From assembly GCF_041435095.1 (NCBI RefSeq), contig NZ_CP108025.1:7502001-7566000 (forward strand): DNA of 64,000 nucleotides. The letters are read 5' to 3'. Shown here in pieces: positions 38,103-41,339 of this stretch. Under the pieces are notes generated by a model. The model was not told where the DNA came from. It made no database searches and worked only from the letters and a program-made list of their open reading frames with translations. Both the position numbers and the translations under genes were made by a program. Source of the stretch: Kitasatospora sp. NBC_00315 (GTDB taxonomy: Bacteria; Actinomycetota; Actinomycetes; Streptomycetales; Streptomycetaceae). How positions within the stretch are numbered: position 1 is the stretch's first letter; each line of letters opens with the position of its first letter.

Positions 38103-39164
38103 ATGACCACCGGCGCGGTGCCGACCGGTGTGCTGACCGGACCGGCCGGGCCCCCGAATCCCACGGCCGACGCGGAGCAGCACCGCCGCTGCATCGCGGA
38201 GGCGGTGACTCGGATGGCGGCGTGCGGAGAACTGGACCTGCCGCTGCCCGGCGCCGGGCGGACCCGCGCCCGGTGGGAGGCGCTCACCCGATGGGCGCAG
38301 TGGGACCTGTCCCTGGCCCGGCTCGCCGAGGGACACACCGACGCCATCGCGATTCTCGCCGAACTCGACTCTCCGGATTCGCGGGAGCCGCCGGCAGGTG
38401 GGGGAGATCCCCTCTGGGGAGTCTGGGCGGCCGAGCCGCCCGGCTACACATTGGAGGCGCACCGGGTGCCCGGCGGGTGGCGTCTGTCGGGGGTGAAACC
38501 GTTCTGCTCGGGCGCCCGGGTCTGCACGCACGCCCTCGTGAGCGCCCGCGAGGGGACGTTGCGGCGTCTGTTCGCCGTCGAGGTCGCGCAGCCGGGCGTC
38601 GCAGCGCTGCCGGACAGTTGGCCCGGCCCGGGCATGGCGGGCAGCGACACACTGGACGTGACCTTCGACGCCGTCTGGGCCGCCCCGCTCGGCGAGCCGG
38701 GCGCCTACGTGGAGCGCCCCGGATTCCACCACGGCGGGATCGGCGTCGCCGCGTGCTGGCACGGGGGCGCCCGCGCCGTCGCCCGCACGCTTCTCGCCGC
38801 CTCGCGGAAGTGGGACCTGGGGCCGCACGCACTTGCCCACCTCGGAGCCGTCGATGCCCGGCTGGCCACCGTCGACGCTCTGCTGGACCGTGTCGCCGCT
38901 GCCGTGGACGCCGACCCCGACGACAAGGACGGCGTCGCACACCTTCGGGCGATGCGGGTGCGCGCAGCCGTCGAGGACGCCGCCGATGACGTGCTGCGCC
39001 GGGTGGGCCGGGCGCTCGGCGCCACCCCGCTGGGCCACGACGCGGTCCATGCGCGTGCCGTCGCGGACCTGACCGTCTACCTGCGCCAACATCATGCGGA
39101 GCGCGACCTCGCCGACCTCGGCAGAGCCGCCTCCGCCGCGCGCCTGGACTGGGAGGACGTGTGA
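38103..39164 (+). CDS. Acyl-CoA dehydrogenase-like flavoprotein
   Basis: Predicted 353 residues, slightly shorter than typical acyl-CoA dehydrogenases. It shows the middle beta-domain (YTLEAHRVPGGWRLSGVKPF and SDTLDVTFDAVW) and the C-terminal helical bundle. The usual catalytic Glu is not evident, so the reaction is uncertain. ATG 38103 is set by GGGAGGG. It overlaps the next gene by 4 nt (GTGA) and starts a four-gene cassette (dehydrogenase, PIG-L deacetylase, methyltransferase, glycosyltransferase) in which every junction is a 4-nt overlap, so the products probably act on one substrate. Confidence 0.85.
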   Translation: MTTGAVPTGVLTGPAGPPNPTADAEQHRRCIAEAVTRMAACGELDLPLPGAGRTRARWEALTRWAQWDLSLARLAEGHTDAIAILAELDSPDSREPPAGGGDPLWGVWAAEPPGYTLEAHRVPGGWRLSGVKPFCSGARVCTHALVSAREGTLRRLFAVEVAQPGVAALPDSWPGPGMAGSDTLDVTFDAVWAAPLGEPGAYVERPGFHHGGIGVAACWHGGARAVARTLLAASRKWDLGPHALAHLGAVDARLATVDALLDRVAAAVDADPDDKDGVAHLRAMRVRAAVEDAADDVLRRVGRALGATPLGHDAVHARAVADLTVYLRQHHAERDLADLGRAASAARLDWEDV

Positions 39165-39973
39165 CGATCCGGCCGGCCCCGCCCCTGTCCGCCCCCGACC
39201 CGCAGCCGCCGCCGACGGACCCGATCCAGGAACCCGGCACCCCGGAAGCCGACTGGCGGGCCTGGCAGGGGCTTCGCGCCCTGCCCGCCATCGACCCGCT
39301 CACCCACCTGCCGGCCACCGCGGGCCGCCGGCCCCGCGTGATGGTGGTCGCCGCCCATCCCGACGACGAGGTCCTCGGCTTCGGCGGCACCATCGCCGTC
39401 CTCGCGGCGGCCGGCGTCCGGCTGCGCCTGGTCTCCATCAGCGCCGGTGAGTCCTCCCACCCGCACAGCAGTGCCCCGGCTGCCCGCGATCTGGCGGCCA
39501 TCCGTACCAGGGAACTGCACCAGGCACTGGGCCGCCTCGGCGCCGATGTGCAGAGCGTTTTCCTGGGCGTCCCCGACGGCCGGGTGGCCCGGCACGAGCG
39601 GGAGCTGACCGGCCAGGTGGCCGACCTGCTGCTGGACTGCGATCTCTGCGTGGCGCCCTTCAGCCGGGACCTGCACCCGGACCACGAGGCCGCGGGCCGG
39701 GCTGTCCTCGCGGCGGGCGCACGGCGCGACCTCCCGGTGTGGGAGTACCCGGTATGGGCATGGCACTGGGCCCTGCCCGGCGACCCGCGGCTGCCCTGGC
39801 ACCGCGCGGCCCGCATCCCGCTGCCGCCAGACGCCCGAGCGCGCAAGCACGCCGCACTGGAGTGCTTCCGCAGCCAGATCCACCCACTGGGCGACCGGCC
39901 GGGCGACGGCGCGATCCTGCCCCCCGAGGAACTCGCCCACTTCCGCCGTGACTTCGAGGTGGTCTGGCGATGA
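39161..39973 (+). CDS. PIG-L/LmbE family deacetylase
   Basis: Predicted 270 residues. The zinc-binding family motif AAHPDDEVLGFGG is near residue 64, and the third ligand appears in DLHPDHEAAG near 168. Members remove acetyl groups from N-acetylglucosamine-type or related amino sugar substrates. A Pro-rich N-terminus of about 40 residues precedes the domain. GTG 39161 overlaps the dehydrogenase stop and ATG of the next gene overlaps its own stop. It is cytoplasmic. The glycosyltransferase partner in the cassette suggests a glycoconjugate substrate. Confidence 0.92.
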   Translation: MTIRPAPPLSAPDPQPPPTDPIQEPGTPEADWRAWQGLRALPAIDPLTHLPATAGRRPRVMVVAAHPDDEVLGFGGTIAVLAAAGVRLRLVSISAGESSHPHSSAPAARDLAAIRTRELHQALGRLGADVQSVFLGVPDGRVARHERELTGQVADLLLDCDLCVAPFSRDLHPDHEAAGRAVLAAGARRDLPVWEYPVWAWHWALPGDPRLPWHRAARIPLPPDARARKHAALECFRSQIHPLGDRPGDGAILPPEELAHFRRDFEVVWR

Positions 39974-40620
39974 CCACTCCCGAGCAGGGCCGGCGCGGCG
40001 CCACGCCGGAGGACTACTTCACCCGGATGTACGCCGCCGAGGCCGACCCGTGGCAGCTCGCCGACCGCTGGTACGAACAGCGGAAGTACGCCCTCACCCT
40101 GGCGGCCCTGCCGAAGCCGGTCTACCGCAGCGCGTTCGAGCCCGGCTGCTCGGTCGGGGTCCTGTCCTCCCTGCTCGCCCCGCGCTGCCGGGCCCTGCTC
40201 TCGTGCGACCGGGAGGAGCGCCCCCTGGCCCGGGCCCGGCCCCGCCTCGCACACCTGCCGCACGTGCGCGTCGAGCGCTGTGTGCTGCCGGGCGACTGGC
40301 CCCGGGAACGCTTCGACCTCGTCGTCCTGTCCGAGCTGCTGTACTACTTCACGGCCGCAGGCGCAGCCGATCTCCTGGACCGCGCGGTGGAGGCACTGGA
40401 ACCGGGGGGAACCCTGGAGCTCGTGCACTGGCGCCACCCGGTGGCGGACCACGCGCGGAGCGCCGACGCCGTCCACCGGCAGGCCCGTGCCCACCCGGCG
40501 CTGGTGCGGATCGCCGCGCACACCGAGCCGGACTTCCTCCTCGACGTGTTCAGCCGCCCCGAGCACCCGGGTACGTCGGCGGAGCGGCTGTCGGTCGCCG
40601 CCGCCGAGGGGCTGACGTGA
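39970..40620 (+). CDS. SAM-dependent methyltransferase, NodS-like
   Basis: Predicted 216 residues. It opens with YFTRMYAAEADPWQLADRWYE, a start typical of NodS-type N-methyltransferases. The SAM-binding motif I is FEPGCSVGVLSSLLA near 56, followed by acidic motif II (LSCDRE) and VVLSELLYYF. NodS methylates the free amino group of a deacetylated chitooligosaccharide, which makes the order here (PIG-L deacetylase then NodS-like methyltransferase) chemically coherent. ATGA and GTGA overlaps join it to both neighbours. Confidence 0.9.
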   Translation: MTTPEQGRRGATPEDYFTRMYAAEADPWQLADRWYEQRKYALTLAALPKPVYRSAFEPGCSVGVLSSLLAPRCRALLSCDREERPLARARPRLAHLPHVRVERCVLPGDWPRERFDLVVLSELLYYFTAAGAADLLDRAVEALEPGGTLELVHWRHPVADHARSADAVHRQARAHPALVRIAAHTEPDFLLDVFSRPEHPGTSAERLSVAAAEGLT

Positions 40621-41339
40621 TCCGCGCGCTGGCCGTGGTCGTCCCGGCCCGCGACGAGGAGGAACTGCTCGGTGGCTGCCTGGACACCGTGCACCGGGCC
40701 GCGCGGCATCCGCGACTGGTGGACGTGCCGATCCGGGTGATCGTCGTCGCCGACGCCTGCACGGACGGTACCGCGGCGCTGGCGCGGCGGTACGGCGCGG
40801 ACCTCGTGGAACTGACCGTGGGCAACGTCGGTGCGGCCCGTGCGGCCGGCAGCGAGCACGCGGTACGCCTCACCCGCGCATCCCTGCCGGGTCTCACGCT
40901 CGACGAGGTGTGGCTCGCCCACACCGATGCCGACTGCCGCGTCCCGGCGGGCTGGCTCGCCCGACAACTCGTCCACGCGGCAGCCGGATGGCACGCCGTG
41001 GTGGGAACCGTCCACGTCGCGGACTGGACCGGTCACCCGGAGGGCACCGCTGAGGCCTTCCGGCGGCACTACCGGCAGGGGTGGACCGCCGACGGGCATC
41101 GGCACGTCCACGGCGCGAACCTCGCCGTGCGGGCAGACGCCTACCGGACGGCCGGTGGCTTCGAGGCGCTCACCGTGGGAGAGGACCGGTCCCTGGTCGC
41201 CGCCCTGGAGGGTGCCGGCCGCCGGATCAGACGCACCACCCGACACCCCGTCATCACCTCGGCGCGACGCGATCCCCGCGCGCGGGACGGCTTCGGCAAG
41301 TTCCTCCGCAGCCTCGACCCGCTGACCGCTGACCGCTGA
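40617..41339 (+). CDS. Family 2 glycosyltransferase
   Basis: Predicted 240 residues from GTG 40617 (GTGA overlap). A GT-A fold is indicated by VVVPARDEEELLGGCLDTV, the nucleotide-binding VIVVADACTDGTA, a metal-binding HTDADCRVP in place of DxD, and an acceptor region GEDRSLVAAL. No membrane segment is visible. It closes the four-gene cassette. The last codons (LTADR, stop) lie in a seven-copy heptamer repeat, so copy-number changes would alter the C-terminus. Confidence 0.92.
   Translation: MIRALAVVVPARDEEELLGGCLDTVHRAARHPRLVDVPIRVIVVADACTDGTAALARRYGADLVELTVGNVGAARAAGSEHAVRLTRASLPGLTLDEVWLAHTDADCRVPAGWLARQLVHAAAGWHAVVGTVHVADWTGHPEGTAEAFRRHYRQGWTADGHRHVHGANLAVRADAYRTAGGFEALTVGEDRSLVAALEGAGRRIRRTTRHPVITSARRDPRARDGFGKFLRSLDPLTADR

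What the first reader, a model, noticed from the sequence alone, without database searches (positions are those of the whole stretch)
38103..41339. Coupled cassette: dehydrogenase, PIG-L deacetylase, NodS-like methyltransferase, GT2
All three junctions are 4-nt overlaps. Known chemistry: NodS N-methylates the amine left by deacetylation of a chitooligosaccharide end, and GT2 enzymes (NodC-like) build such sugars. The set here could make an N-methylated, acyl- or lipid-modified amino sugar. The product is unknown to me and no export gene is present.
Basis: partly seen in the sequence, partly recalled or inferred. Interest (0 to 1): 0.55.

Follow-up and report, generated by a model that had tools for sequence, protein, structure and literature searches.

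The report
Conserved aminosugar-methylating four-gene operon
Four overlapping genes, kept together in very different bacteria, probably build a small N-methylated amino-sugar compound of unknown structure that may help cells survive stress.

Summary
In detail: four genes (38103-41339, +) joined by three 4-nt overlaps. It is not a local accident. Of the 80 best relatives of the methyltransferase in GTDB contigs, 73 carry all four genes in the locus, and annotated plasmids show the set in Deinococcus and Proteobacteria. Deacetylase and methyltransferase are one polypeptide in 9 loci. Of 10 actinobacterial stretches without PIG-L, 9 have an unrelated CE4 deacetylase in its place. This supports the deacetylate-then-N-methylate idea.

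Two parts of the interpretation fail. The first gene is not a normal acyl-CoA dehydrogenase: none of 87 aligned homologues has the catalytic glutamate, and its nearest structures include DszC and the aminosugar N-oxygenase KijD3. The glycosyltransferase is small and soluble, not NodC-like.

Best reading: a cytosolic pathway for a small N-methylated, perhaps oxidised, aminosugar glycoside linked to stress. In two Comamonas it sits inside the trehalose operon; in A. baumannii it falls with trehalose and catalase genes. The product is unknown, and a catalase neighbourhood link on plasmids did not beat a same-plasmid control.

The parts
38103..39164 (+). A: flavoprotein of the acyl-CoA-dehydrogenase fold, non-canonical (no catalytic Glu), 353 aa
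   Evidence: (pLDDT 90.8)
39161..39973 (+). P: PIG-L/LmbE-type N-deacetylase, 270 aa, intact AHPDDE and HPDH motifs
   Evidence: H66, D68, D69, E70, H172, D174, H175 in 78 of 78 aligned
39970..40620 (+). M: NodS-like SAM-dependent methyltransferase, 216 aa
   Evidence: (PDB 4isc E 3e-41, NodS 3ofj E 4e-13)
40617..41339 (+). G: soluble GT-A family 2 glycosyltransferase, 240 aa; its stop codon lies in a 7-nt tandem repeat
   Evidence: (pLDDT 93.9)
41479..42396 (+). neighbour: DUF2231 + Rieske ferredoxin-like protein; a homologue follows the cassette in Kitasatospora L052 and L200
42522..43058 (+). neighbour: ferritin-like protein; ferritin-like genes also lie by the cassette in other Kitasatospora and in two Comamonas

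Best explanation
A-P-M-G is one cytosolic biosynthetic pathway for a small, N-methylated amino-sugar glycoside. Inferred order: a sugar carrying an N-acetylamine (probably GlcNAc-type) is joined to an acceptor by the GT2; PIG-L (or a CE4 enzyme in Rubrobacter-type loci) removes the acetyl group; the NodS-like enzyme methylates the freed amine; and the ACAD-fold flavoprotein oxidises or oxygenates the product or a precursor, rather than desaturating an acyl-CoA. The compound most likely serves in stress or stationary-phase survival. Shown here: the conserved unit, P::M fusions, deacetylase replacement, loss of the acyl-CoA dehydrogenase catalytic base, soluble GT-A fold (model). Shown by others: co-expression with trehalose and catalase genes in A. 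baumannii. Inferred: substrate, product, order of steps and physiological role.
For: 73 of 80 loci carry all four genes, in order A-P-M-G 58 times and G-A-P-M 9 times of 80 by ORF calls. Pairwise distances of the four proteins correlate at r = 0.84-0.92 over 63 loci, 0 of 999 permutations as high (this shows co-inheritance, which shared species descent also gives). Nine clean P::M fusions. CE4 deacetylase next to A or M in 9 of 10 stretches without PIG-L, and a GT::NodS::CE4 protein. PIG-L motif residues intact in 78 of 78. A: 0 of 87 have Glu in the catalytic region; profile and fold neighbours include DszC, MsuC, KijD3, DnmZ. Stress: otsA-A-P-M-G-otsB in two Comamonas; otsB-GH65-P-M-G-A in Legionella; otsA or otsAB downstream in two Acinetobacter; A. 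baumannii operon ACICU_02432-02435 down 31-62-fold together with otsAB and a catalase (PMC5660220); long catalases 1-2 kb from the cassette in five actinobacterial loci.
Against: No substrate, product or activity is known. The stress link is uneven: of 36 actinobacterial genomes with M (25 of which have any catalase) one has a catalase within 10 kb, and none an otsB within 10 kb; on plasmids, catalase in 6 of 22 annotated cassette stretches is not above 2 in 300 kb of same-plasmid control (Fisher p 0.28), and ots 5 of 22 against 0 is p 0.06. No SigB/SigF-type promoter was found before the window's operon. L197 has A, M and G with neither PIG-L nor the CE4 gene, and six of 80 loci have M alone. 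The C-terminal His of DszC does not fall on an invariant His in A. VIA-align Z does not separate monooxygenases (30-32.5) from dehydrogenases (30-31.6).
Confidence: 0.5

Rival explanations
1. The cassette decorates a cell-surface polysaccharide or glycolipid: G adds a sugar to a lipid-linked or polymer acceptor, and P and M convert its N-acetyl group to N-methylamine.
For: Sphingomonads have further glycosyltransferases in front of A-P-M-G; Rhizobium carries GT::NodS::CE4 inside a glycosyltransferase and ABC-transporter cluster; the G profile matches ArnC and PcManGT.
Against: Among 22 annotated stretches, further glycosyltransferases beside the cassette are named only in the three sphingomonad ones; I saw no flippase, ligase or lipid-carrier gene that stays with the set; none of the four proteins has a clear membrane segment.
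Confidence: 0.2
2. The set makes a thiol cofactor or secondary metabolite by mycothiol/bacillithiol-like logic: P deacetylates a GlcNAc-X intermediate, M acts elsewhere than on the amine or after coupling, and A oxidises X.
For: P matches BshB1, BshB2 and MshB models, all far below their cut-offs; structural relatives of A act on sulfur or amines; a GCS2-type carboxylate-amine ligase lies near the cassette in Legionella and clusters with ORFs in a Kitasatospora (L054) and a Rubrobacter-type locus (L181).
Against: That ligase family was seen in 3 loci only; the P::M fusions argue that M acts on what P releases. No dedicated search for cysteine ligases was made.
Confidence: 0.17
3. One reading: a Nod-factor-like N-methylated, acyl- or lipid-modified amino sugar, with A supplying an unsaturated acyl chain and G a NodC-like synthase.
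For: M is over the Pfam NodS cut-off; PIG-L or CE4 with NodS-type enzymes recur together.
Against: A lacks the catalytic Glu; G is soluble and small; no nodA, nodB or nodC is named in the 22 annotated stretches.
Confidence: 0.08

Closest known systems
Rhizobial Nod-factor end modification (NodB deacetylase, NodS N-methyltransferase, NodC synthase; chemistry recalled)
   Same: Deacetylase with a NodS-family methyltransferase and a GT2 enzyme; M is in Pfam NodS
   Different: PIG-L instead of a CE4 enzyme in most loci seen, soluble GT, an ACAD-fold flavoprotein in the set, no acyltransferase seen, mostly non-symbiotic hosts
Mycothiol / bacillithiol early steps (GT then PIG-L deacetylase MshB/BshB; recalled)
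   Same: Soluble GT plus PIG-L deacetylase on a small GlcNAc conjugate would be the same kind of logic; weak model hits
   Different: Equivalog cut-offs not met; extra methyltransferase and flavoprotein; Cys ligase not established
ACAD-fold flavin monooxygenases: DszC/TdsC, MsuC and aminosugar N-oxygenases KijD3/DnmZ
   Same: Fold and best profile hits; DszC Ser163 and Trp205 align with near-invariant S136 and W173
   Different: About 20% identity; shorter; C-terminal RQxH where DszC has its His; activity unknown
GT / SAM methyltransferase / polysaccharide deacetylase protein of Rhizobium (L201 4408-7410)
   Same: Three of the activities in one 1000-aa protein
   Different: CE4 not PIG-L, no ACAD partner in the stretch, polysaccharide-type cluster; function unknown to me
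Acinetobacter operon ACICU_02432-02435 (PMC5660220) and the same gene types beside a BLUF gene in A. nosocomialis (PMC9020721)
   Same: Same four gene types together
   Different: Listed there as expression data or gene context; no function assigned in the passages read

Membership tests
Canonical acyl-CoA dehydrogenase | Catalytic Glu in the C-terminal IYEGT-type motif, or the helix-G Glu | tested here: not met
   Aligned with own-genome ACADs, the Glu column is H/S in A and the helix-G Glu column is Gly; 0 of 87 A proteins have Glu in the six C-terminal columns examined, and G211 is kept in 86 of 87
Canonical acyl-CoA dehydrogenase | Fold | tested here: met
   AF2 model pLDDT 90.8; Z about 30 to many ACADs
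ACAD-fold flavin monooxygenase (DszC/KijD3 type) | Nearest profile and structure neighbours | tested here: inconclusive
   Top Foldseek and profile hits are largely of this group but VIA Z does not separate the groups
ACAD-fold flavin monooxygenase (DszC/KijD3 type) | Active-site Ser (DszC S163), Trp (W205) and C-terminal His (H391); residue roles recalled | tested here: inconclusive
   Ser 86/87 and Trp 85/87 conserved; at the His position A has Q329 (87/87), with H331 in 76/87 two residues on
ACAD-fold flavin monooxygenase (DszC/KijD3 type) | Uses reduced flavin and O2 | not testable with these tools
   Needs an enzyme assay
PIG-L/LmbE deacetylase | Pfam PF02585 over cut-off; AHPDDE and HPDH motifs | tested here: met
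   100.5 bits against 28.2; motif residues 78/78
NodS | Pfam PF05401 over its gathering score | tested here: met
   43.5 against 24 bits
NodS | NCBIfam NF041650 equivalog cut-off (nodulation NodS) | tested here: not met
   59.9 against 300 bits
NodC-like synthase | Membrane-embedded GT2 (recalled) | tested here: not met
   240 aa, highest 19-residue hydropathy 1.28, compact GT-A model
Mycothiol/bacillithiol deacetylase | TIGR03445/TIGR04001/TIGR04000 equivalog cut-offs | tested here: not met
   34.0, 48.8 and 46.6 bits against 224.35, 182.5 and 195.25

The most novel reading that the evidence does not exclude
An undescribed stress metabolite found across several bacterial phyla: an N-methylated (possibly N-oxygenated, e.g. 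hydroxylamine or nitrone) amino-sugar glycoside made by a portable four-enzyme cassette that often travels with trehalose, catalase and ferritin genes, with the flavoprotein acting as an aminosugar N-oxygenase like KijD3.
Probability: 0.25. Interest if true: 0.82.

Novelty: new variant of a known kind. Interest (0 to 1): 0.5.

Why it matters
A four-enzyme set kept together in actinomycetes, Deinococcus, alphaproteobacteria, Acinetobacter and Legionella, on plasmids as well as chromosomes, implies a useful molecule that I found no description of. The proteins are small and appear soluble, so product and enzyme order can be tested directly. It also questions an annotation: public records name the first gene an acyl-CoA dehydrogenase, which it very probably is not.

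Tried and rejected
Rejected: a Methylobacterium G::A fusion. One 803-aa ORF holds both domains, but its middle (about 290-420) reads like out-of-frame sequence. Rejected: L084 as a P::M fusion, because P ends early and the linker looks out of frame; that leaves 9 of 10 same-frame candidates.

Catalase as a strict neighbour. It is among the most recurrent neighbour families by clustering (13 loci, 10 genera; L111 and L197 of these lack a full set, and L199 and L055 are the same contig). Five actinobacterial GTDB loci with the cassette have one 1-2 kb away (L052, L053, L064, L092, L114; Pfam-confirmed). But the 36-genome search (1 of 36 within 10 kb) and the same-plasmid control do not support a general rule. 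That control is coarse: six 50-kb stretches, binned by me as 15 units, from plasmids chosen because they carry the cassette.

An otsB-like neighbour in L189 suggested by clustering proved to be another HAD hydrolase, so 3 and not 4 genera support that cluster.

Stress sigma promoter: GTT-N15-18-GGGTA lies upstream of the first gene in 6 of 72 loci against 1.07% of random 280-base stretches, a looser SigB-like pattern in 5 of 72 against 1.7%; neither occurs before the window's operon or in the four other Kitasatospora loci tested. The M. smegmatis SigF regulon (PMC4694148, passages) lists a methylase and a GT2; I could not show that they are this cassette.

The 50 rows do not show KijD3 or DnmZ; that absence means nothing.

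The HMM hits on annotated plasmid loci are partly circular, since most of those proteins were in the training sets; the record annotations and the loci outside the training sets (L137, L181-L200, A of L132 and L205) are independent. The 80 loci are the best 80 of 163.

Papers: ten searches. Nine papers were opened; only PMC5660220 and PMC9020721 show the gene set. Passages only were read of PMC4694148, PMC6181384, PMC13232832, PMC7142981, PMC9239045, PMC10325922, PMC9020721 and PMC12029717; PMC5660220 was read in passages plus its section 8. The other listed papers were not opened.
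Full report
Observation. Pfam supports PIG-L (100.5 bits), NodS (43.5) and Glycos_transf_2 (42.7) over their cut-offs; the first gene shows only Acyl-CoA_dh_M at 31.9 bits, under the 33.3 cut-off. The window is part of an 8.3-Mb genome; the closest M relatives in named collections are mostly Kitasatospora.

Is it a unit? A scan of GTDB contigs with M gave 163 relatives, of which the best 80 were kept. By tblastn 73 of the 80 carry all four genes; L071 lacks A at a contig edge and six show M only, one of them (L125) at a contig edge. ORF calls give the order A-P-M-G in 58 of 80, G-A-P-M in 9, three other complete arrangements, 4 partial and 6 M only. The 4-nt overlap recurs at 42 of 70 A-P junctions, 53 of 71 P-M and 40 of 60 M-G. 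In the family sample 18 of 101 genomes have M and 16 of these 18 have all four; in the phylum sample 27 of 246 have M. Over 63 loci with all four, pairwise distances correlate at r = 0.84 to 0.92 and 0 of 999 permutations reach these values; this shows joint inheritance, to which shared species descent also contributes. The set is patchy and also occurs on plasmids.

Other phyla. Annotated plasmid records name the same four products together in Acinetobacter, Novosphingobium, Sphingobium, Limimaricola, Sulfitobacter, Comamonas, Paracoccus and Pandoraea; with a glycosyltransferase on the other strand in Deinococcus NW-56, Komagataeibacter and Bradyrhizobium. Legionella has P-M-G annotated, and a 'hypothetical' after them scores as A with a profile that it did not train. 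Loci with fewer parts: D. radiodurans and Roseomonas without G, Paraburkholderia with M and G only, and Cupriavidus with A, M, G together and a PIG-L gene on the far side of a catalase.

Evidence on the chemistry. A tenth same-frame candidate, L084, looks frame-disrupted and was dropped. Second, among the 20 larger actinobacterial stretches ten show no P by profile. Nine of these ten, eight in family f18 (which contains the Rubrobacter indicoceani replicon) and one in f9, have a CE4 polysaccharide deacetylase next to A or M; the tenth, L197, has neither. Eight of the nine also have A, G and an FAD oxidoreductase; L184 has only M and the CE4 gene. Third, Rhizobium has a 1000-aa protein with Glycos_transf_2, NodS and Polysacc_deac_1 domains. 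Two unrelated deacetylases beside the same methyltransferase are best explained by a common N-acetyl substrate whose freed amine is methylated. PIG-L motif residues are kept in 78 of 78 aligned sequences. The NCBIfam equivalog for nodulation NodS is not reached (59.9 of 300 bits), nor are the MshB/BshB equivalogs, so membership of those families is not claimed.

The first gene. A profile of 31 A proteins finds type-2 ACADs, DszC, TdsC, MsuC and, more weakly, nitrososynthase and DnmZ in the PDB, with true dehydrogenases also among the 25 hits. The AF2 model (pLDDT 90.8) has as top Foldseek hits 5gj7, KijD3, DszC and MsuC; VIA-align puts TdsC first (Z 32.5), with dehydrogenases at 30-31.6, effectively tied. 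The discriminating test is the active site. Aligned with ACADs of the same genome, the catalytic Glu of the IYEGT motif is replaced, and the helix-G Glu seen in L148-L150 falls on Gly. None of 87 aligned A proteins has Glu in the six C-terminal columns examined. DszC S163 and W205 (numbers counted by me; roles recalled) fall on S136 (86/87) and W173 (85/87). The DszC C-terminal His does not fall on an invariant His: A has Q329 in 87/87 and H331 in 76/87. I therefore reject 'acyl-CoA dehydrogenase' and favour, without proof, a flavin oxidase or monooxygenase.

The glycosyltransferase. It is modelled as a compact GT-A protein (pLDDT 93.9) with no clear membrane segment. Structural neighbours are diverse GT2-type enzymes, so donor and acceptor cannot be read from the fold.

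Physiology. Comamonas endophytica and C. antarctica have the cassette between otsA and otsB, with otsA overlapping A by 4 nt. Legionella has otsB and a GH65 enzyme directly upstream. Two Acinetobacter plasmids have otsA or otsAB downstream. Table 2 of PMC5660220 (section 8 read) lists ACICU_02432-02435, glycosyltransferase, methyltransferase, LmbE and ACAD-related protein, as one operon reduced 31- to 62-fold in two colistin-dependent mutants, beside otsA, otsB and a catalase. PMC6181384 (passages) ties KatE of that species to BfmR and drying survival and cites trehalose genes as BfmR-controlled; the passages do not name this operon. PMC9020721 (passages) shows the same gene types as context of a BLUF photoreceptor. 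Five actinobacterial loci have a catalase 1-2 kb away.

Against a general rule: of 36 actinobacterial genomes with M, 25 have any catalase and only G057 has one within 10 kb; none has otsB within 10 kb. Plasmid catalase frequency (6 of 22 stretches) is not above the same-plasmid control (2 in six 50-kb stretches); ots genes are 5 of 22 against 0 (p 0.06, with my binning). In the window the next genes are a DUF2231-Rieske protein and a ferritin-like protein; in Kitasatospora L052 homologues of the two are followed by a catalase. The window's own genome has its catalases far from the cassette.

Verdict. A real, conserved cassette for which I found no functional study. The stress role is likely but rests mainly on Proteobacteria. 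Ten paper searches in an open-access library support the statement on the literature; subscription papers and preprints were not searchable.

Noticed in passing
window 41319-41368: Seven perfect copies of a 7-nt unit (CCGCTGA) run across the stop codon of G; since 7 is not a multiple of 3, copy-number change would alter the C-terminal tail of the enzyme.
   Followed up: partly
window 29421-37427: Two DUF4331 genes (29421-31142 -, and about 32822-34279 +), a TPR protein and a NicO-type metal transporter gene with a His-rich stretch lie upstream of the cassette.
   Followed up: no
window 45981-49247: Gas-vesicle genes (GvpO and two GvpL/F) lie downstream.
   Followed up: no
L205 452-1585; L054 5074-6276; L181 13340-14452: GCS2-type carboxylate-amine ligase ORFs lie within about 8 kb of the cassette in Legionella, a Kitasatospora and a Rubrobacter-type locus; possibly a further step of the pathway (Pfam run on the Legionella one only).
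   Followed up: partly
L132 2184-4523: In Deinococcus radiodurans the A domain is the C-terminal part of a 779-aa protein; the first 419 residues give only a weak glycosyl hydrolase 53 hit (E 0.013).
   Followed up: partly
L201 4408-7410: Rhizobium protein joining a GT2, a NodS-like methyltransferase and a CE4 deacetylase, in a glycosyltransferase/ABC cluster.
   Followed up: partly
L209 962-1393: A BLUF photoreceptor gene lies about 6 kb from the cassette in Bradyrhizobium, echoing the A. nosocomialis context in PMC9020721.
   Followed up: no
phages collection hits H165, H166: Two 'Acinetobacter phage MD-2021a' records hold a neighbouring LmbE-like gene and methyltransferase like P-M; whether they are phage, plasmid or host sequence was not checked.
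   Followed up: no
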